Assembly (NCBI GenBank): GCA_945486445.1
Contig: CALYTD010000005.1
Location: 1-11,548 of the forward strand
Reading direction: 5' to 3'
Source of the DNA: an uncultured Prevotellaceae bacterium
GTDB taxonomy: Bacteria; Bacteroidota; Bacteroidia; Bacteroidales; Bacteroidaceae
Length of the DNA stretch: 11,548 bases
Part shown: in pieces, positions 284 to 10,599 of the stretch
Layout: every line of letters begins with the position of its first letter
How positions within the stretch are numbered: position 1 is the stretch's first letter
Made by a program: the position numbers and the translations under genes
The notes under the pieces: generated by a model
Told to the model about the DNA's origin: nothing
The model's database searches: none
The model's input: the letters and a program-made list of their open reading frames with translations, nothing else

Positions 284-338
284 CCCTTGCAGGGGCGGAC
301 GGCCATATCGCAAACGGGTGCTGATTACCATACAAACA

Positions 339-387
339 GGTGCTGATTACAGTGTAAAAAGCACTTGCCTACACTGCAATCAGCACC
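339..387. repeat. Family D 49-nt hairpin repeat, copy 1
   Basis: A 49-nt unit opens with GGTGCTGATTAC and closes with TACACTGCAATCAGCACC. The first and last 18 nt are complementary apart from one A/C mismatch, giving an 18-bp stem around a 13-nt loop. A free half-copy of the left arm (GGTGCTGATTAC) lies just before it at 317-328. The same 49-nt length and the same ends recur at 10492-10540 in the same orientation, with a different centre. It lies downstream of the S41 gene stop (minus strand) and could end or stabilise that transcript, but it has no T-tract after the stem. I infer a REP/MITE-like dispersed element. Confidence 0.75.
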
Positions 388-435
388 CTTCCAATTCATG
401 GTTTGCCGCGTTCCGCGCTTTGTCGCACCCCTGGC

Positions 436-2685: not shown

Positions 2686-2739
2686 TGCCGTAATGTGTTT
2701 TTAAGTAAATAATGTGTTTTATTGTGATAATTCTTTGGG

Positions 2740-2747
2740 CAAAGGTA
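2740..2747 (-). promoter_or_regulatory. Bacteroidota-type -7 box for the barrel/S41 transcript
   Basis: The minus strand reads TACCTTTG, an exact match to the Bacteroidota -7 consensus TAnnTTTG, 54 nt before the barrel ATG. A clear TTTG -33 box at the expected distance is not visible, so the upstream element is weak or unusual. Initiation would be expected near 2730-2735. Confidence 0.6.
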
Positions 2748-2776
2748 ATGAAAAAAGTTAGAATAGATGCAGGAAA

Positions 2777-2829
2777 GCAGGGGAAAAAGAAGGGGAAAGA
2801 GCCCTTTTTACCCTGCTGGCAGTCGCCAG
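2777..2829. repeat. Two adjacent hairpins between the divergent promoters
   Basis: GCAGGGGAAAAAG (2777-2789) is complementary to CTTTTTACCCTGC (2804-2816) except at one base, leaving a 14-nt purine-rich loop. It abuts a second small hairpin, CTGGC-AGTC-GCCAG (2816-2829). Both lie upstream of the two divergent transcription starts and so in neither predicted transcript. An operator or DNA-structural role is possible, as is chance; I cannot name a regulator. Confidence 0.4.
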
Positions 2830-2862
2830 TCCCCCGGCAATGCGTTATTTTTAGTTAATAAA

Positions 2863-2894
2863 TTTGGAATTGGCGGGAATATTATGTACCTTTG
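2863..2894 (+). promoter_or_regulatory. Promoter of the thiamine operon
   Basis: TTTG (2863-2866) and TACCTTTG (2887-2894) are separated by 20 bp, matching the Bacteroidota primary sigma consensus (TTTG, 19-21 bp, TAnnTTTG). Transcription would begin around 2900, some 10 nt before the TPP riboswitch and about 350 nt before thiS. Confidence 0.75.
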
Positions 2895-2908
2895 CAAAAG
2901 ACGTAAAA

Positions 2909-3143
2909 ACTCGGGGGTGCCCCTGTTGGTGGTTTGGTGGTTTAGTCGTTTGGTTGTTTAGTCGCGTGGCGACTCAGCCGTATTCAGGGTTTGGCCGTGT
3001 GGTTAAAACAATGAGCAATAAACCTGTCAGCGGCAGCAACTAAACAACTAAACATCCAAACGACTAAACCACCAAACCACCAACAAGGAGCTGAGATTAT
3101 ACCCATTGACCTGATGCAGGTAATGCTGCCGTAGGAAATGAGA
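2909..3143 (+). ncRNA. TPP riboswitch (THI element) with a greatly enlarged P3 arm
   Basis: All conserved THI-element segments are present, in order: 5' strand ACTCGGGGGTGCCCC (2909-2923), CTGAGA (3091-3096), ACCC (3101-3104), CCTGAT (3110-3115), GCAG...CTGC (3116-3119 with 3126-3129) flanking GTAATG, and CGTAGGAAA (3130-3138). GGGT 2915-2918 pairs with ACCC for P2, and CTC 2910-2912 with GAG 3140-3142 for a short P1. Aptamers of this class are normally about 100 nt; this one is about 235 nt because roughly 160 nt of inverted repeat is built into P3 between the GCCCC strand and the GGAGCTGAGA strand. TPP binding would be expected to repress the thi genes downstream. The insertion is in a region known to vary in length in this class, so ligand binding should be retained; that is inference. 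Confidence 0.93.
2924..3085 (+). repeat. Family A inverted repeat forming the extended P3 of the riboswitch
   Basis: 2924-2953 is perfectly complementary to 3056-3085 over 30 bp. After one T/T mismatch (2954/3055) another 8 bp pair (2955-2962 with 3047-3054), giving a helix of about 39 bp. The loop of 84 nt (2963-3046) can fold further. The left arm is made of G/T words such as GGTGGTTTGGTGGTTTAG and GTTTGGTTGTTTAGT; the right arm is the G-poor complement. The same word family recurs between thiH and tenI. The helix stacks directly on canonical P3 pairs (G2919-C3091, C2920-G3090), so it is continuous with the aptamer. Confidence 0.9.
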
Positions 3144-3169
3144 ATGATTTTATGGCGTATGAAAACTCC

Positions 3170-3203
3170 GGGTGATGGCATTGATGCCGTTATCCGTTTT
3201 TTG
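3170..3203 (+). terminator. Candidate riboswitch-controlled intrinsic terminator
   Basis: GGGTGATGGCA (3170-3180), loop TTGA, and TGCCGTTATCC (3185-3195) form an 11-bp stem with three G-U pairs, followed by GTTTTTTG and further Ts. It starts 27 nt after the aptamer and ends about 50 nt before thiS, the right place for an expression platform. The region just before and into the stem (3162-3174, AAAACTCCGGGTG) nearly copies the 5' strand of the aptamer (2906-2919, AAAACTCGGGGGTG). Without TPP it could pair with the aptamer's GAG and ACCC strands in its place, which would block this terminator. That switching model is inference. Confidence 0.65.
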
Positions 3204-3251
3204 TTTATAGCGCTTCTCCCGCAGATATAACCTTAAAACAATTACGTAGAG

Positions 3252-3449
3252 ATGAAGATATACATAAACAACAAGTCTGTTGAGACGGGGGCTGATACCC
3301 TTGCCGCTCTTGCCCGTGAACTGAACCTGCCCGACCGTGGAGTGGCCATGGCGCTGGGCACGCAGATGGTGCAGCGTAACCTGTGGGCGGAGACGGTACT
3401 GAAAGAGGACGACAGCGTGATAATCATCAAGGCGGCGTGTGGGGGATAG
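3252..3449 (+). CDS. thiS: ThiS, ubiquitin-like sulfur carrier protein
   Basis: 65 residues, the normal length for ThiS, beginning MKIYINNKSVE and ending in the diagnostic Gly-Gly (ACGG). ThiF adenylates this C-terminus, which then becomes a thiocarboxylate and gives sulfur to ThiG for thiazole formation in the cytoplasm. The beta-grasp pattern is visible: strand (KIYINNK), helix (TLAALARELN), and closing strand (DSVIIIKAACGG). It is the first gene after the TPP riboswitch and its terminator, so it is the first to be switched off by TPP. Only a weak GTAGAG precedes the ATG. ThiE follows after a 196-nt repeat-filled gap. Confidence 0.95.
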   Translation: MKIYINNKSVETGADTLAALARELNLPDRGVAMALGTQMVQRNLWAETVLKEDDSVIIIKAACGG

Positions 3450-3460
3450 AGCCCTTCGGG

Positions 3461-3635
3461 AGGTTTTAGGTTGTGGGTTATGGGGTTGTAGGTCTTTTGG
3501 CTATGGCCTTGAATACAAAAAGCCTGCAACCGTAAGGACCTATAACCCACAACCTCCACCCTCCAACCTCCACCCCACAACCTCTCAACCTGCAACCCAC
3601 AACCTCTCAACCCACACCCTCCAACCTCTCAACCT
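3461..3635 (+). repeat. Family B inverted repeat and C/A-rich array between thiS and thiE
   Basis: AGGTTGTGGGTTAT (3468-3481) is complementary to 3542-3555 over 14 bp, and AGGTC (3490-3494) to GACCT (3537-3541). The left arm has an extra GGGGTTG bulge. The 3' arm then runs on, to 3635, as a degenerate tandem array of CCAACCTC, CCACAACCTC and TCAACC words with almost no G. The array ends 10 nt before the thiE ATG. The family word GGTTGTAGGTC also occurs between thiF and thiH. The transcript here would be a hairpin followed by an unstructured, G-poor leader entering thiE. Confidence 0.85.
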
Positions 3636-3645
3636 TAAAAGAAAC

Positions 3646-4278
3646 ATGCTTCAATTCATATCACATTACACCGACAGATACTCGTATCTTGACTCCATAC
3701 GCATGGCACTTGACGGCGGATGTCAGTGGGTGCAGTTGCGGATGAAGGGCGTGACGGACACGGAGATGCGTCCCGTGGCGCGGGAGGCACAGCGTATGTG
3801 CCGTGAGGCAGGTGCCACATTCATCATTGATGACCATGTGGCACTGGTGAAGGAACTGCGTGCCGACGGTGTGCATCTGGGCAAAAAGGACATGCCGATA
3901 GCCGAGGCGAGGGCGATGCTTGGCGCTGACTTCATAATAGGCGGCACCGCCAACACGTTTGAGGACGTAGTGGCGCACCACAAGGCTGGGGCAGACTACA
4001 TTGGCTGCGGGCCTTTCCGCTTCACCACAACGAAACAGGGACTGGCGCCGGTGCTGGGCATTGAGGGCTATAAAAGCATAGTGGCGCGAATGAAGGAGGC
4101 ACATATCAACCTGCCGGTAGTGGCGATAGGCGGCATAACGGCGGAGGATATTCCCGGCATTATGCGGACGGGAGTGACGGGAATAGCACTGAGCGGCACC
4201 GTGCTACGCGCTGAAAATCCGGCAAAGGAGATGCAGAGGCTGCTGGGATTAGTGCGCTTGCATGAATCAAGGAGTTGA
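3646..4278 (+). CDS. thiE: Thiamine-phosphate synthase ThiE
   Basis: 210 residues, normal for ThiE. This TIM-barrel enzyme condenses HMP pyrophosphate with thiazole (carboxy)phosphate to thiamine phosphate. Family motifs are intact: QLRMK (30-34) at the pyrophosphate site, FIIDDHVAL (59-67), GVHLGKKD (75-82), YIGCGPFRFTTTKQG (118-132) and VVAIGGI (158-164). The frame is open upstream to a GTG at 3439 inside thiS, but those 69 codons only translate the C/A-rich repeat. I therefore start at ATG 3646, where the family's N-terminal strand begins. A second, shorter relative (tenI-like) lies later in the operon; this copy has the full set of catalytic motifs and is the likely coupling enzyme. The leader AAAAGAAAC has no true Shine-Dalgarno site. 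Confidence 0.95.
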   Translation: MLQFISHYTDRYSYLDSIRMALDGGCQWVQLRMKGVTDTEMRPVAREAQRMCREAGATFIIDDHVALVKELRADGVHLGKKDMPIAEARAMLGADFIIGGTANTFEDVVAHHKAGADYIGCGPFRFTTTKQGLAPVLGIEGYKSIVARMKEAHINLPVVAIGGITAEDIPGIMRTGVTGIALSGTVLRAENPAKEMQRLLGLVRLHESRS

Positions 4279-4286
4279 CAAACCGC

Positions 4287-4371
4287 ATGTAGAGACAATG
4301 TGCCACATCGTCTCAATAAATGAAAATACATACTGACGGCAAGGAGACGATGTGCTACATCGTCTCTACAT
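4287..4371 (+). repeat. Family C palindrome pair between thiE and thiG
   Basis: Two 28-nt units in inverted orientation (4287-4314 and 4344-4371) match at 25 of 28 positions. Each is also a hairpin by itself: the right unit is GAGACGATGT-GCT-ACATCGTCTC (perfect 10-bp stem), the left one GAGACAATGT-GCC-ACATCGTCTC (one mismatch). ATGTAG/CTACAT flank the outer sides. The RNA can therefore form either one long helix or two small hairpins. A related GTAGGGACG pair follows thiD. The remaining 34 nt to thiG are A-rich with no Shine-Dalgarno site. Confidence 0.9.
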
Positions 4372-4405
4372 ACTACCCGGAAATAAATAAAACATAATAA
4401 AGACA

Positions 4406-5176
4406 ATGAGCAAATTAGTTATCGCGGGAAGGGAATTTGATTCCCGCTTGTTCCTTGGAACAGGAAAATTCAACAACAATGCCCTGATGGCAGAGGCCAT
4501 AAAGGCCAGTGGCACGGAGATGGTCACCGTGGCAATGAAACGTGTGGAACTGGAGGATAAGCATGATGACCTGCTCAACCACATCACGCAAAACGCGGGA
4601 ATACAACTGCTTCCCAACACGTCCGGCGTGCGTAACGCCGAGGAAGCGGTGTTTGCGGCGCAGATGTCACGTGAGGCTTTCGGCACAAACTGGCTGAAAC
4701 TGGAGATACATCCCGACCCACGCTATCTGCTGCCAGACTCTGTCGAGACGCTGAAAGCCACGGAACAACTGGTGAAACTGGGCTTCGTGGTATTGCCATA
4801 CTGCCAGGCCGACCCCACATTGTGCAAGCATCTGGAGGAGGCGGGAGCCGCCACCGTGATGCCGCTTGCCGCGCCTATCGGCACAAACAAGGGCCTGCGC
4901 ATGAAGGACTTTTTGCAGATTATCATAGAGCAGGCCACAGTACCGGTGGTGGTGGATGCCGGTATCGGCGCGCCGAGCCACGCCGCGGAGGCCATGGAGA
5001 TGGGAGCCGACTGCTGTTTGGTGAACACTGCCATTGCCGTGGCAGGCGACCCGGTGCAGATGGCCATAGCATTCAAAGAGGCGGTGATAGCCGGACGCAG
5101 GGCTTATGAGGCCGGTCTCGGAGCCATAAGCGACTCGGCCGAGGCGAGTTCGCCGCTGACAGCGTTCCTGAACTGA
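4406..5176 (+). CDS. thiG: Thiazole synthase ThiG
   Basis: 256 residues, the usual ThiG length. It forms thiazole phosphate from deoxyxylulose 5-phosphate, ThiS thiocarboxylate and dehydroglycine through a Schiff base on lysine. The motif [16 protein letters not shown] places the imine Lys at 98 with Glu 100, and [20 protein letters not shown] places the acid/base Asp at 184. These match the B. subtilis Lys96/Glu98/Asp182 triad as I recall it, with a constant +2 offset. LFLGTGKF (16-22) and the C-terminal [15 protein letters not shown] segment are also typical. It follows the family C repeat and is separated from thiC by 27 nt. Its ATG has only an A-rich leader. Confidence 0.96.
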
Positions 5177-6892
<1,716 letters not shown>

Positions 6893-6897
6893 GATTA

Positions 6898-7590
6898 ATG
6901 GACGGAAGGTACGACAGACAGCTGATATTGCCTGAGATTGGCAGCGAGGGACAGTGCAAGTTGACCGAGGCACGGGTGCTGATTGTCGGCGTGGGCGGAC
7001 TTGGCTCTCCCTTGGCGGCATATCTTACCGCTGCCGGAGTGGGCACTGTCGGCCTGGTGGATGATGACGTTGTCAGCGTGAGCAACCTGCAACGGCAGGT
7101 GCTTTATGACGAGTCGCAGCAGGGAAAAGCCAAGGTTCTCTGTGCGAAACAGCGTCTGGAAGCCCTCAACAGCGAAGTGAACGTGGTGGCGCACCATACA
7201 AGGCTGACCGCCGGCAATGCCCGTGAACTGATAAGCCAGTACGACATCGTGGCGGACGGAACCGACAATTTCGCCACGCGTTACGTCATAAGCGATGCCT
7301 GTGAGGCACTGGGCAAGCCATACGTATATGCTGCTATCAACGGGCTTGACGGTCAGGTGGCGGTGCTGTGCAAGGCAAAAGCGACGTACAGAACACTCTT
7401 TCCTGACGAGAAAACGATGCTCTCGATGCCCCATCCGGGCAAGGCCGTGGCGGGAGTGACGCCTGCCGTGGTGGGAAGTGTGGAGGCCGGTCAGGTGATG
7501 CAGTTGATATGCGGCTATGGTGAGCCGCTGATTGACCGCCTGTGGACAATAGATCTGCGCACCATGCAGTCGTTCATTATTGATATTTAA
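6898..7590 (+). CDS. thiF: ThiF/HesA-type E1-like adenylyltransferase for ThiS
   Basis: 230 residues of the E1/MoeB/ThiF fold; expected to adenylate the ThiS C-terminal glycine. ATP-site features are present: GVGGLGS (31-37), VGLVDDDVV (51-59), NLQRQVLY with Arg 66, GKAKV with Lys 77/79, and DGTDNF (120-125). Unlike E. coli ThiF it has no CXXC zinc pairs, and the usual YRCLFP...NCAEAGV region reads YRTLFPD (164-170) then MPHPGKAVAGVTPAVVG. It therefore lacks the cysteine that forms the acyl disulfide with ThiS. I believe this Cys-free version is common in Bacteroidota HesA-like proteins. Context (thiS operon, no moa genes) makes ThiS the partner rather than MoaD. The longer in-frame ORF from 6745 overlaps thiC and is rejected; ATG 6898 starts the family domain. 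Confidence 0.9.
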   Translation: MDGRYDRQLILPEIGSEGQCKLTEARVLIVGVGGLGSPLAAYLTAAGVGTVGLVDDDVVSVSNLQRQVLYDESQQGKAKVLCAKQRLEALNSEVNVVAHHTRLTAGNARELISQYDIVADGTDNFATRYVISDACEALGKPYVYAAINGLDGQVAVLCKAKATYRTLFPDEKTMLSMPHPGKAVAGVTPAVVGSVEAGQVMQLICGYGEPLIDRLWTIDLRTMQSFIIDI

Positions 7591-7601
7591 TCATGGTTTG
7601 C

Positions 7602-7674
7602 AGGTTAAAGGTTTTGGGTTGTAGGTCCCGATGAGCACATTAGGCACTACAATCCACCCCAAAACCTTTAACCT
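7602..7674 (+). repeat. Family B inverted repeat between thiF and thiH
   Basis: AGGTTAAAGGTTTTGGG (7602-7618) is perfectly complementary to 7658-7674 (17 bp). After a 5-nt bulge on the right arm, TTGTAG (7619-7624) pairs with CTACAA (7647-7652). The G/T arm is upstream, and the C/A arm continues as CCAACCTTTAACC and ACAACA directly into the thiH ATG at 7698. The word GGTTGTAGGTC is shared exactly with the thiS-thiE gap. Confidence 0.87.
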
Positions 7675-7697
7675 CCAACCTTTAACCAAACAACAAT

Positions 7698-8822
7698 ATG
7701 TTTTCAGAAGAATTATTAAAGATAAGTTGGGACGAGACCACAGAGCGCATTGCTCAGATGACTGAGGCTGATGTGAGGCGCGCATTGGCAAAGGAACACT
7801 GTGACGTCAACGACTTCATGGCCATGATTTCGCCTGCTGCTGAGCCGTATTTGGAGCAGATGGCGAGGCTGTCAAGGAAATATACGGAGGAGCGTTTCGG
7901 CAAGACCATGTCAATGTTCATACCGCTTTACATCACTAACTCATGCTCCAACTCCTGCGTATATTGCGGTTTCCACCGCACAAACCCCATGCCCCGCACC
8001 ATCCTCACGCCCGAACAGATAGAGGATGAGTACAAGGCCATAAAGAAACTCGCGCCTTTTGAGAACATTCTTCTCGTCACGGGAGAGAATCCGGCGAAGG
8101 CAGGCGTGCCCTATCTTGCCAAGGCTATCGACATTGCCAAGAAGTATTTTTCCAACATAAAGATAGAGGTCATGCCCTTGAAGGCGGAGGAATACCGCGA
8201 ACTTACCAAGCACGGACTGAACGGGGTAATATGTTTTCAGGAGACATATCATCGTGAGAACTACAACATCTACCATCCCGCAGGCATGAAATCGAACTTT
8301 GAGTGGCGCGTAAACGGCTTTGACCGCATGGGACAGGCGGGTGTTCACTCCATCGGCATGGGGGCGTTGTTAGGCTTGGAGAAGGACTGGCGCACCGACG
8401 TTGTGATGATGGCGCACCACCTTCGCTACCTGCAAAAGCACTATTGGAGAACTAAATACTCCGTGAACTTCCCCCGTATGCGCCCCGCTCAGAACGAAGG
8501 CTTCCACCCCAACTGCTTTGTCACCGACAGGGAACTGGCTCAGGTGACTTTCGCCATGCGCATTTTCGACCACGATGTGGATATTTCTTACAGCACGCGG
8601 GAGCCGCAGTTCATCAGGGACAATATGTGTACGCTTGGCGTTACCACCATGTCGGCAGAGTCAAAGGTTAATCCTGGCGGTTACCACACATACCCCCAGG
8701 CTCTGGAACAGTTCACTGTCTCTGACGACCGGACGGCTGTTGAGATTAACCGCCGCCTGAAACAACTTGGCCGCGAGCCCGTCTGGAAGGATTGGGACGC
8801 GTCGTTTGATATGTTCAAATGA
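7698..8822 (+). CDS. thiH: 2-iminoacetate synthase (tyrosine lyase) ThiH
   Basis: 374 residues, close to E. coli ThiH. This radical-SAM enzyme splits tyrosine to dehydroglycine and p-cresol for thiazole synthesis. The cluster motif CSNSCVYC (C83, C87, C90; CX3CX2C) is followed by GFHRTN, and later blocks LLVTGE, EVMPL, CFQETYH and SIGMGALLGL are typical of the ThiH/biotin-thiamin-synthesis group. The C-terminal region (STREPQFIRDN through VNPGGY) is complete. No glycine oxidase ThiO gene lies in the operon, so the oxygen-independent route is used, fitting an anaerobe. It follows the family B repeat, has no Shine-Dalgarno site, and is followed by the family A repeat. Confidence 0.97.
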   Translation: MFSEELLKISWDETTERIAQMTEADVRRALAKEHCDVNDFMAMISPAAEPYLEQMARLSRKYTEERFGKTMSMFIPLYITNSCSNSCVYCGFHRTNPMPRTILTPEQIEDEYKAIKKLAPFENILLVTGENPAKAGVPYLAKAIDIAKKYFSNIKIEVMPLKAEEYRELTKHGLNGVICFQETYHRENYNIYHPAGMKSNFEWRVNGFDRMGQAGVHSIGMGALLGLEKDWRTDVVMMAHHLRYLQKHYWRTKYSVNFPRMRPAQNEGFHPNCFVTDRELAQVTFAMRIFDHDVDISYSTREPQFIRDNMCTLGVTTMSAESKVNPGGYHTYPQALEQFTVSDDRTAVEINRRLKQLGREPVWKDWDASFDMFK

Positions 8823-8823
8823 G

Positions 8824-8956
8824 TTGTTTAGTTATTTGGTTGTTTAGTTGTTTGGTTATTGGCTTTGCTGTATTAATAAAAGAATACGTAGTTGTGCCAT
8901 CCAATAGACATACAACTAAACAACCATACAACTAAATAACCAAACCACAAACCACC
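8824..8956 (+). repeat. Family A inverted repeat between thiH and tenI
   Basis: GGTTGTTTAGTTGT (8838-8851) is perfectly complementary to 8912-8925 (14 bp). ATTGG (8858-8862) pairs with CCAAT (8901-8905), and outer words such as TTTAGTTATTTGG have degenerate partners up to 8947, giving imperfect arms of about 40 nt. The words are the same family as in riboswitch P3. The C/A arm (CCAAACCACAAACCACC) runs directly up to the proposed TTG start of tenI with no other leader. Confidence 0.85.
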
Positions 8957-9499
8957 TTGTTCACAACCATAATAATAACAAAGCCCGCATTCTTTGACGG
9001 TGAGGCAGCCCGCATAACGGCCCTCCTCCGTCAGGGAATGGCGGGCTTTTTGCATATCCGCAAACCCGGTTCCGCGGCTGAGGAGGTGGAGACACTGCTG
9101 CGCCAGATACCCAAGGACTGCCACTGCCGCCTCGTGTTGCACGACCATTTCGCCCTTGCCGTGCGGTACGGACTGTACGGCGTGCACCTCAACTCACGCA
9201 ATCCGCTGCCCCCGGAGGGCTGGACGGGGAGCGTAAGCCGCAGTTGCCACTCGCTGGAAGAGGTGAGGCAGTGGAAAGACCGCTGCCGTTACGTCTCGCT
9301 CTCGCCCATCTTCGACTCCGTCTCCAAGCCCGGTTACGCCTCCGCTTTCAGCCGGGAAGAGATAGCGCGGGCGGTGCTTGACGGCACGATAGACAGCAGG
9401 GTGTATGCCCTCGGCGGCGTTACCTTCTCACGCCTTGCCACTGTTGAGGCAATGGGGTTCGGCGGGGCGATGATTCTTGGAGATGCATGGAGGGAATAA
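8957..9499 (+). CDS. tenI: TenI-like thiamine-phosphate synthase paralogue
   Basis: 180 residues with a TTG start. It belongs to the ThiE/TenI TIM-barrel superfamily: FLHIRKPG (31-38) replaces the QLRxK of ThiE, then VLHDHFAL (60-67), GVHLNSRN (75-82), SCHS, YVSLSPIFDSVSKPGY (112-127), ALGGV (151-155) and GFGGAMILGDAW. The loop SPIFDSVSK lacks the GPxxxTxTK of ThiE. I therefore expect the thiazole tautomerase (aromatising) or a partial coupling role rather than a simple duplicate. From memory, Bacteroides has a thiSEGCHF-tenI operon with a similar last gene. No ATG or GTG is available before residue 28 in frame, and TTG 8957 gives the N-terminus MFTTIIITKPAFF expected of these proteins. It ends 4 nt before thiD. 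Confidence 0.85.
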   Translation: MFTTIIITKPAFFDGEAARITALLRQGMAGFLHIRKPGSAAEEVETLLRQIPKDCHCRLVLHDHFALAVRYGLYGVHLNSRNPLPPEGWTGSVSRSCHSLEEVRQWKDRCRYVSLSPIFDSVSKPGYASAFSREEIARAVLDGTIDSRVYALGGVTFSRLATVEAMGFGGAMILGDAWRE

Positions 9500-9503
9500 T
9501 AAG

Positions 9504-10277
9504 ATGAAGACAATACTGACAATAGCCGGCAGCGACACCTGCGCCGGCGCGGGAATACAGCAGGACTTGAAGACCATTACCTCGCTCGGGCATTATGCCG
9601 TGACCGTGACCACTGCCCTTACGGCGCAAAACACCGTGGGGGTGCAGAGGGTGATGGCGGTGCCGGAGGAGATGCTCCGCGCGCAGTTGGAGTCCGTTCT
9701 CGACGACATTGCCGTGTCGGCCATAAAGATTGGCATGATACCCGACGTGACATCTGCCCGAATAATCGTTGATGCCATCCGCCAGACAGCCGTTCCCGTG
9801 GTCTGCGACCCCGTCATGCTCTCCACCAGCGGCACGCAGTTGATGGCGGACGAGTGTATTGATTACATCACCGAAGCCCTCTTCCCGCTCTGCACCCTCG
9901 TCACTCCCAACATCCCCGAAGCCCTGCGCCTTACGGGATGTGACGGCACTCGCAACCTTGACACCCTCGGCCGGAGGCTCGTCTCCAGGTTCCGCACGTC
10001 CTTCTTGCTGAAAGGCGGGCACGCGGAGGGTGACGTAATGCGCGACGTGCTCTATTGCACCGATGGCGAGACACATGAGTATTGCTCGCCGCGCATAGCC
10101 ACGACCAACCTTCACGGCACGGGATGCACCATGTCGAGTGCCGTTGCCACGCTGTTGGCGGAAGGCCGTCCGCTGCCCGAAGCCGTGCGGGGGGCGAAGG
10201 CGGTGATAGACCGTGGCATAGAGAAAGGCCGCTCGCTGCGTATAGGGAAGGGCAACGGGCCGCTGTGGTTGTTTTGA
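9504..10277 (+). CDS. thiD: HMP/HMP-phosphate kinase ThiD
   Basis: 257 residues, ribokinase-like fold. It phosphorylates HMP and HMP-P to the pyrophosphate used by ThiE. Recognised motifs: TIAGSDTCAGAGIQQDLKT (6-24, usually GSDSSGGAGIQADLKT), CDPVMLSTSG (101-110), LVTPNIPEA (132-140), LLKGGH (168-173) and the anion-hole segment GTGCTMSSA (206-214). In-frame ATG 9477 lies inside tenI. I prefer ATG 9504 because it has GGAGGGA 8 nt upstream and gives the family N-terminus MKTILTIAGSD. It is the last thi gene, and the TA-AG spacing of 4 nt after tenI suggests translational coupling. The Ser-to-Cys change in the glycine-rich loop is unlikely to be critical. Confidence 0.95.
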   Translation: MKTILTIAGSDTCAGAGIQQDLKTITSLGHYAVTVTTALTAQNTVGVQRVMAVPEEMLRAQLESVLDDIAVSAIKIGMIPDVTSARIIVDAIRQTAVPVVCDPVMLSTSGTQLMADECIDYITEALFPLCTLVTPNIPEALRLTGCDGTRNLDTLGRRLVSRFRTSFLLKGGHAEGDVMRDVLYCTDGETHEYCSPRIATTNLHGTGCTMSSAVATLLAEGRPLPEAVRGAKAVIDRGIEKGRSLRIGKGNGPLWLF

Positions 10278-10361: not shown

Positions 10362-10439
10362 TGTAGGGACGCACCTTGGTGCGTCCGCATTACCGCATGA
10401 AAACCCGCCACGTCGGACGCACCAAGGTGCGTCCCTACA
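10362..10439 (+). repeat. Family C perfect 26-bp inverted palindrome pair after thiD
   Basis: 10362-10387 and 10414-10439 are exact reverse complements over 26 nt. Each is also a hairpin with 9-bp stem GGACGCACC/GGTGCGTCC and a 2-nt centre (TT or AA). The spacer is 26 nt. The layout (TGTAG outside, self-complementary core inside, two units inverted) copies the thiE-thiG repeat with different core bases. It could act as a processing or end-protection hairpin for the thi mRNA, but no T-tract follows, so I do not call it an intrinsic terminator. Confidence 0.9.
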
Positions 10440-10491
10440 ACGGCGTTGCATGCCATTGAAACGCAGGATGTTACAAATCCGGCTGCAATCA

Positions 10492-10540
10492 GGTGCTGAT
10501 TACCTCGCAAAATAGGCCTGTTTACACTGCAATCAGCACC
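10492..10540. repeat. Family D 49-nt hairpin repeat, copy 2
   Basis: Same orientation, length and ends as copy 1 at 339-387: 12 nt identical at the left (GGTGCTGATTAC) and 18 nt at the right (TACACTGCAATCAGCACC), then a shared CCTT. The centre differs, so the stem is only 10 bp here. A free half-arm CTGCAATCA (10483-10491) abuts its left side. It lies 60 nt before the pectinesterase ATG. That last stretch (10541-10599) is A/T-rich, and I could not find a convincing TTTG...TAnnTTTG promoter in it. Confidence 0.75.
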
Positions 10541-10599
10541 CTTTTACGGGACAGACTCATATTATACTAATCAAAACTATAATCTAACAAAACAACAAA

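What the first reader, a model, noticed from the sequence alone, without database searches (positions are those of the whole stretch)
2909..3143. TPP riboswitch whose P3 stem carries an approximately 160-nt inverted-repeat insertion
Seen directly: canonical THI-element segments at 2909-2923 and 3087-3143 are separated by a 30+8 bp helix with an 84-nt loop. This roughly doubles the aptamer. Established: P3 of TPP riboswitches tolerates length variation. Inference: a mobile or expandable intergenic repeat entered the variable P3 arm without breaking pairing, and its two arms stayed complementary because the helix is under selection or is maintained by templated repair. It could slow folding, add a pause during transcription, or supply a second regulatory input in the loop.
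Basis: partly seen in the sequence, partly recalled or inferred. Interest (0 to 1): 0.85.

Follow-up and report, generated by a model that had tools for sequence, protein, structure and literature searches.

The report
Riboswitch arm filled by genomic repeat
A vitamin B1 sensor in the RNA of a Prevotella-like bacterium has one optional arm replaced by a very long hairpin of a kind that recurs between other genes of the same genome, apparently without disturbing the part that binds the vitamin.

Summary
Window 2909-3143 is a TPP riboswitch aptamer before a thiS-E-G-C-F-H-tenI-D gene row. Its P3 arm is 170 nt (2921-3090). Of 40 other TPP riboswitches printed, 39 arms could be delimited: 12-47 nt; the two nearest relatives have 38 nt and the same aptamer boundaries. 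The extra sequence is a 42-nt, 95% complementary inverted repeat of degenerate 8-nt units. Its arms, not its loop, recur in the host genome, mostly in gaps between co-directional genes. In equilibrium folding the hairpin is self-contained: core pair probabilities are equal with and without it. Terminator and genes are kept, so a working riboswitch is likely but untested. P3 arms of TPP riboswitches in two same-genus genomes (G348, 82 nt; G282, 69 nt) also match dispersed repeats; these two share a 7-nt unit and may be one event. A fourth long arm (G302, 80 nt) is single-copy. Long P3 arms are known in fungi (up to 172 nt), moderate ones in enterobacteria; the listings of eight literature searches showed no report of a dispersed repeat inside a riboswitch helix. 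I call it a new variant of a known kind: a repeat lodged in a permissive arm. A regulatory role is possible but unsupported.

The parts
2863..2894 (+). Bacteroidetes-type promoter-like motif (TTTG at 2863-2866, TAccTTTG at 2887-2894), 14 nt before the aptamer
   Evidence: sequence; the motif is recalled knowledge, not tested; the sigma-70 scan does not cover it
2909..2920 (+). 5' half of TPP aptamer (P1 and P2 strands, start of P3): ACTCGGGGGTGC
   Evidence: one exact occurrence in the window; same segment in L050 and L125
2921..2962 (+). 5' strand of the enlarged P3: degenerate 8-nt units, G/T-rich
   Evidence: inverted repeat I1; arm matches elsewhere in the genome
2963..3046 (+). 84-nt apical part of P3, weakly paired, not matched elsewhere in the genome on its own
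3047..3088 (+). 3' strand of the enlarged P3: degenerate 8-nt units, A/C-rich
   Evidence: inverted repeat I1
3091..3143 (+). 3' half of TPP aptamer (CTGAGA, P2, P4/P5, P1)
3169..3202 (+). intrinsic terminator: 12-pair stem (3169-3196) then T6, likely expression platform
   Evidence: 2 terminator-like sites found in 2700-3300, 0.7 expected from shuffles; a similar hairpin and T run in L050 and L125 (by eye)
3252..3449 (+). thiS, first gene downstream
   Evidence: TIGR01683 over its cut-off
3646..10277 (+). rest of the gene row: thiE, thiG, thiC, thiF-like, thiH, tenI/thiE-like, thiD
   Evidence: the thiF-like and tenI-like proteins are under the NCBIfam cut-offs
3459..3564 (+). 7-nt-unit hairpin in the thiS-thiE gap (L050 has a different hairpin here)
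7598..7678 (+). 7-nt-unit hairpin in the thiF-thiH gap (shared with L050, absent in L125)
8823..8940 (+). 8-nt-unit hairpin in the thiH-tenI gap, same family as the P3 insert

Best explanation
The element is a TPP riboswitch, probably functional, that turns down the thiamine genes by transcription termination. Its P3 arm has been enlarged to 170 nt by a hairpin of a repeat family that otherwise sits in gaps between genes of this Prevotella-like genome. Shown: aptamer segments, arm lengths in relatives, repeat membership of the arms, a terminator-like hairpin. Inferred: the hairpin was copied or inserted into the pre-existing variable arm (about 60%) or grew there by tandem expansion (about 40%). 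It persists because a self-complementary insert at the tip of P3 folds on itself and leaves the TPP-binding core alone, so it is a tolerated passenger. Foreseeable side effects, not shown: the 30-pair duplex could be cut by RNase III, and transcription of about 130 more bases separates the two aptamer halves in time.
For: Aptamer segments match relatives. With the TPP layout given by hand, P2 pairs form in 14 of 14 relatives, 95.7% of all cells pair (1 of 500 shuffles as high), and 2 of 5 P3-base pairs change on both sides (window not included). 39 delimited arms of other TPP riboswitches are 12-47 nt. The P3 sequence gives 99 rows in the host genome at E <= 0.001, self and both strands counted. 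In 81 of 272 contigs 11 of 14 hairpins of this family lie between co-directional genes, median 1 nt after the upstream stop. Core pair probabilities are equal to two decimals with the insert and with an in-silico empty site, for four 3' ends. Enforcing the core costs 4.77 kcal/mol with or without the insert, against a mean of 6.51 (sd 2.08) for 100 shuffled inserts. A terminator-like hairpin follows here and in relatives. Parallel cases: the G348 P3 arm has 43 rows in its own genome at E <= 0.01, that of G282 14 at E <= 0.001, self included.
Against: No expression, probing or binding data. No covariance model recovers the full element. The automatic consensus of the 14 relatives found P4/P5 but paired the 5' segment with CTGAG instead of forming P2 and P3. 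In one search the count of pairs with changes on both sides (3) was reached by 40 of 500 shuffles. The window's minimum-energy fold shows the TPP layout for 2905-3139, a stretch that leaves out the 3' strand of P1, but not for 2895-3260; unliganded P2 probability is 0.12, 0.45, 0.14 and about 0 for ends 3157, 3168, 3200 and 3251, with or without insert. 14 of 100 shuffled inserts cost no more than the real one. Co-directional gaps are 402 of 488 overall, so 11 of 14 is no enrichment. The long arm of G302 is not repeated in its genome. The species is known here from one half-complete genome only.
Confidence: 0.75

Rival explanations
1. The insert has been recruited: the long duplex and its loop change regulation, for example by RNase III processing, by delaying the meeting of the two aptamer halves, or by a second signal acting on the loop.
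For: 30 uninterrupted pairs exceed what RNase III usually needs (recalled). In Klebsiella, single bases of an extended P3 change ligand discrimination (PMC12632268, passages read).
Against: Equilibrium core pairing is unchanged. The loop has no match of its own in the genome. Hairpins of the same family lie in other gaps. The two closest relatives lack it.
Confidence: 0.15
2. The arm grew in place: short direct repeats in an ancestral P3 expanded, and template switching across the hairpin made the two arms match.
For: Arms are tandem 8-nt units, and the order of unit variants is mirrored in the two arms with one mismatch in about 39. Within-hairpin arm identity exceeds that of arms paired at random (8-nt family 0.879 against 0.829, 1 of 2000 permutations; 7-nt family 0.884 against 0.743, 0 of 2000), a biased test because hairpins were chosen for complementarity. 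The P3 arm of G282 is largely a tandem array.
Against: The same unit family occurs at many sites of this genome, which purely local expansion would not give. Between species the same gap can be filled or nearly empty (thiC-thiF: 5 nt in the window, about 140 in L050, about 4 in L125, stop codons taken off).
Confidence: 0.35
3. The riboswitch is broken or decaying and the insert marks lost function.
For: Unusual length; low unliganded P2 probability.
Against: The 3' motif is identical to that of the closest relatives, a terminator-like hairpin follows, and eight thiamine genes are open. The low P2 probability is the same without the insert.
Confidence: 0.07
4. Assembly artefact: a dispersed repeat caused a false join inside the leader.
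For: Genome in 272 contigs, 51% complete; repeats invite misjoins.
Against: The two sides of the insert are the two halves of one aptamer in the right order, followed by the expected gene row, so two false joins would be needed. Other genomes show long repeat-bearing arms too.
Confidence: 0.05

Closest known systems
TPP riboswitch / THI element (Rfam RF00059)
   Same: conserved halves, P2-P5 layout possible, thiamine genes, terminator-like hairpin
   Different: P3 arm 170 nt against 12-47 in 39 delimited arms; under Rfam's gathering score
Fungal TPP riboswitches with long P3 (PMC11683625, passages read)
   Same: P3 up to 172 nt, mean about 150; the Rfam model often fails to find the full element when P3 is long
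   Different: the passages do not describe dispersed repeats; here the host is a bacterium and the arm is made of a repeat
Extended P3 of the Klebsiella thiC riboswitch Kp04 (PMC12632268, passages read)
   Same: bacterial TPP riboswitch with a longer P3; the E. coli riboswitch given this P3 still responded to pyrithiamine
   Different: 24 nt were grafted; not described as a repeat in the passages
BOX repeat between two T-box riboswitches upstream of the pneumococcal trp genes (PMC3049150, passages read)
   Same: dispersed hairpin repeat in a riboswitch leader that, by the authors' RNA-seq, still seems to act
   Different: the repeat lies between two riboswitches, not inside an aptamer helix
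REP elements with GTAG or CGTC tag (PMC3733652, passages read)
   Same: dispersed intergenic hairpins; GTAG-type elements also occur in this window
   Different: the P3 insert is made of tandem 8-nt units with a long loop and holds neither GTAG nor CGTC on either strand

Membership tests
TPP riboswitch (RF00059) | conserved 5' segment (ACTCGGGGTGC) and 3' segment (CTGAGA...ACCTGAT...GTAGG) in order | tested here: met
TPP riboswitch (RF00059) | Rfam gathering score | tested here: not met
   none; 38.4 of 54.3 bits with the 5' half misplaced; long P3 is a described cause of such misses (PMC11683625)
TPP riboswitch (RF00059) | P2, P3 base, P4 and P5 form | tested here: inconclusive
   all four are in the minimum-energy fold of 2905-3139, as in L050, but not in that of 2895-3260, and unliganded P2 probability is 0-0.45 depending on the 3' end
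TPP riboswitch (RF00059) | lies upstream of thiamine genes with an expression platform | tested here: met
   (terminator by pattern only)
TPP riboswitch (RF00059) | binds TPP and changes expression | not testable with these tools
   needs probing or a reporter assay
Dispersed 8-nt-unit hairpin family of this genome | arms match other hairpins of the genome | tested here: met
Dispersed 8-nt-unit hairpin family of this genome | lies between co-directional genes | tested here: not met
   11 of 14 do; this one lies in a divergent gap, 235 and 163 nt from its neighbours
REP (GTAG/CGTC) element | GTAG or CGTC tag beside a short palindrome | tested here: not met
   neither word nor its complement in 2921-3090
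Mobile element (MITE-like) | target-site duplication or sequence beyond the arms shared between copies | tested here: inconclusive
   one search shows shared arms only; no duplication noticed by eye; no strain comparison was possible

The most novel reading that the evidence does not exclude
The P3 arm of TPP riboswitches is a recurrent landing slot in this genus: dispersed hairpin or tandem repeats of at least two families have entered it in different species, because the arm accepts self-folding inserts without cost to ligand binding, and some inserts have become part of leader processing or timing. (Odds lowered from 0.30 on checking: the G348 and G282 arms share a 7-nt unit and follow related receptor genes, so they may be one event.)
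Probability: 0.27. Interest if true: 0.7.

Novelty: new variant of a known kind. Interest (0 to 1): 0.5.

Why it matters
It shows where a regulatory RNA can take up a genomic repeat without apparent harm, and offers natural insertion variants of one aptamer. It also warns that standard covariance searches can miss or misplace bacterial riboswitches with long arms, so their variety may be underestimated. If repeats enter aptamer arms repeatedly, they are a plausible raw source of new regulatory RNA parts.

Tried and rejected
Rfam at gathering score found nothing. The mir-1468 match at relaxed threshold (49.5 of 95 bits) is taken as an artefact of a long hairpin. Covariance model R1 from 14 relatives was meant as an independent test of the whole element, but it too took a decoy 5' half at 3020, so it supports the 3' half only. 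The arm co-evolution test is biased by how hairpins were chosen and is no main argument. Repeat origin of the G302 arm: rejected, single copy. Spread of the P3 repeat: 9 of 150 genomes, own included, have a match at E <= 1e-6 (at most five candidates scored per genome, so a lower bound). Genomes with no or very weak hits: of 40 (37 without and 3 with weak hits), 8 had any match at E <= 1, and I find those of G302, G088 and G348 convincing; G346 holds a copy that looks truncated after the 3' half. P3 arms were looked at in 34 of the 44 genomes whose best hit lay under Rfam's cut-off (361 less 317): G302, G348 and G088, own, and the 30 genomes with loci (30 loci of 41 matches; 26 loci by script, of which L223 was not delimited and L240 was cut short, 33 nt by script but about 50 by eye; L232, L243, L244 and L245 by eye). 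Genomes over the cut-off were looked at only as far as go. The survey is no rate. Polarity: the 8-nt and 7-nt classes were defined as G/T-arm-first; a separate check found no A/C-first hairpin among 102 inverted repeats. Literature: the listings of searches (one returned no paper) showed no report of a dispersed repeat within a riboswitch helix; I read passages of PMC3049150, PMC11683625, PMC4260697, PMC2704228, PMC5771137, PMC5882874, PMC12632268, PMC2258182 and PMC3733652 and no whole paper. The library lacks most subscription papers.

Full report
What is there. Window 2909-3143 carries the two halves of a TPP riboswitch. The 5' half ACTCGGGGGTGC is at 2909-2920, its one exact occurrence in the window (at one mismatch 18 of 200 shuffles also hold a match). 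The 3' half begins at 3091. Between them lie 170 nt with an inverted repeat, arms 2921-2962 and 3047-3088, 95% complementary, 84 nt apart, folding into runs of 30 and 8 pairs and a weakly paired tip. The region 2895-3260 folds 9.4 standard deviations below shuffles. Downstream are a 12-pair terminator-like stem with T6 at 3169-3202 and thiS, thiE, thiG, thiC, a thiF-like gene, thiH, a tenI/thiE-like gene and thiD (the thiF-like and tenI-like proteins stay under the NCBIfam cut-offs). A Bacteroidetes-type promoter motif (recalled, untested) sits 14 nt upstream, so the insert should be transcribed as part of the leader.

Why automatic annotation misses it. Rfam gives nothing at its own cut-off. 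With a relaxed threshold it reports 3020-3155, taking a decoy 5' half from inside the insert. A model that I built from 14 relatives without the window does the same. A study of fungal TPP riboswitches reports that the Rfam model often fails to find the full element when P3 is long (PMC11683625, passages). The full element therefore rests on the conserved segments, on comparison and partly on folding: the minimum-energy fold of 2905-3139, which leaves out the 3' strand of P1, has the same layout as that of relative L050, but the fold of 2895-3260 does not show P2.

Relatives. The window is contig C5 of a 1.42 Mb, 51% complete genome. Among the 41 loci compared the nearest by ThiG and ThiC (98% each) is L050, Prevotella sp. 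RGIG8630; next is L125 from unnamed same-genus genome G327. Both have P3 arms of 38 nt and the same core. One search printed 40 distinct other TPP riboswitches, these two among them; 39 arms could be delimited and measured 12-47 nt. They were the loci returned plus my picks, not a random draw. In 398 genomes of the genus the 3' half pattern occurs in 240 and RF00059 in 361 at E <= 0.001, 317 over the cut-off. Across 14 relatives, with the known layout given by hand, 95.7% of cells pair (1 of 500 shuffles as high), P2 is intact in all and two of five P3-base pairs change on both sides; but the number of pairs with such changes (3) was reached by 40 of 500 shuffles, and the automatic consensus found P4/P5 but not P2 and P3.

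The arm is a genomic repeat. The P3 sequence as a query gives 99 matching rows in its own genome at E <= 0.001, itself and both strands included; apart from its own reverse strand and one other hairpin (69%) they cover one arm only. In 81 of 272 contigs (687,735 bases) I catalogued 102 inverted repeats of at least 18 nt and 80% complementarity: 14 of the 8-nt-unit family and 12 of a 7-nt-unit family. Of the 14, 11 lie between co-directional genes, a median of 1 nt after the stop codon and 6 nt before the next start; of the 12, 10 do, at medians of 12.5 and 28.5 nt. Co-directional gaps are 402 of 488 overall, so this is no enrichment. The P3 copy is the only one of the 26 classed in a divergent gap (45 such gaps; one 8-nt-unit hairpin has an unknown neighbour). 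The classes were defined with the G/T-rich arm first; no A/C-first hairpin turned up among the 102.

Turnover. The gaps of the thi row differ between the three closest species (read by eye): thiS-thiE holds a 7-nt-unit hairpin in the window, a C/G-rich hairpin in L050 and another 7-nt-unit hairpin in L125; thiC-thiF is 5 nt, about 140 and about 4; thiE-thiG holds the same GTAG-type palindrome in window and L050 and none in L125; thiF-thiH holds the same 7-nt-unit hairpin in window and L050 and none in L125; thiH-tenI holds 8-nt, 7-nt and 8-nt units. Such hairpins come and go, by insertion, loss or local growth. I could not tell which.

Does it disturb the aptamer? Pair probabilities of P2, the P3 base, P4 and P5 are the same to two decimals with the insert and with an in-silico empty site, for transcripts ending at 3157, 3168, 3200 and 3251, while the ensemble energy differs by 80.5 kcal/mol. 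The cost of enforcing the core is 4.77 kcal/mol in both cases; with 100 shuffled inserts it is 6.51 on average (sd 2.08, range 4.77-14.09), and 14 of 100 are as cheap. Against this, P2 without ligand is at 0.12, 0.45, 0.14 and about 0 for the four ends in either form. These figures show neutrality of the insert, not an active aptamer. Kinetics, ligand and tertiary contacts were not modelled.

Other cases. Among weakly scoring TPP riboswitches of the genus I found three more arms over 60 nt, all before TonB-receptor-like genes (named by eye): G348, 82 nt, whose sequence gives 43 rows in its own genome at E <= 0.01; G282, 69 nt, largely a tandem array of 7-nt units, with 14 rows at E <= 0.001; and G302, 80 nt, found only once in its genome. 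So in two further species the arm matches a dispersed repeat of another kind than in the window, and in one it does not. G348 and G282 have related receptor genes, and their arms share the AGTTGAC unit (a 16-nt common stretch), although the G348 arm also has a GC-rich repeated core. They may go back to one event, so I count at least two entries, not three.

What is known. P3 is the variable arm of TPP riboswitches: up to 172 nt in fungi (PMC11683625, passages), 7-115 in algae (PMC4260697, passages), and extended in Klebsiella and Serratia; the E. coli riboswitch given the Klebsiella P3 still responded to pyrithiamine (PMC12632268, passages). A BOX repeat separates two T-box riboswitches in pneumococcus (PMC3049150, passages). 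The listings of searches showed no description of a dispersed repeat inside an aptamer helix; the library lacks most subscription journals.

Verdict. Membership as a TPP riboswitch is well supported by conserved segments and context, less by unaided folding, not by the Rfam score and not by experiment. The most likely story is a tolerated passenger repeat in a permissive arm. A regulatory role, for example through RNase III cleavage of the 30-pair duplex, is a testable minority view. The finding is a real and instructive variant of moderate interest, rising if the parallel cases prove to be a rule.

Noticed in passing
L202 (G088), L232 (G004), L243 (G296), L244 (G101), L245 (G076), around 1480-1650: A divergent TPP-like leader with GGTGGTGCC ... 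GGCTGAGA ... ATACACATTG(C/T)ACC: P2 appears as GUG/CAC instead of GGG/CCC and the CCTGAT segment is changed; in L202 a thiD-like frame follows (by eye). Possibly a variant aptamer.
   Followed up: partly
window 3459-3564, 7598-7678, 8823-8940 and contigs: Many gaps between co-directional genes of this genome hold hairpins of degenerate 7-nt or 8-nt units with the G/T-rich arm first and the A/C-rich arm second; no hairpin of the opposite order was found among 102 inverted repeats.
   Followed up: partly
window 4287-4371 and 10362-10439: GTAG-tagged palindromes (GTAGAGACG..., GTAGGGACGCACC...), REP-like; the first is shared with L050 at the same place.
   Followed up: no
window 311-390 and 10486-10543: Palindromes with GGTGCTGATTAC near both ends of the contig; 21 inverted repeats of this kind in 81 contigs, 9 of them in convergent gaps, perhaps terminators.
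   Followed up: no
G348 genome, e.g. L213 and L214 around 1490-1575: A repeat with a CTCCGCT...GAGCGGAG core flanked by 7-nt tandem units, 43 matching rows in the genome, one of them in a TPP riboswitch arm.
   Followed up: partly
L209/L211 (G346), around 1501-1532: A TPP riboswitch-like copy that seems to end soon after ACCTGAT, without the usual P4/P5 closing strand.
   Followed up: no
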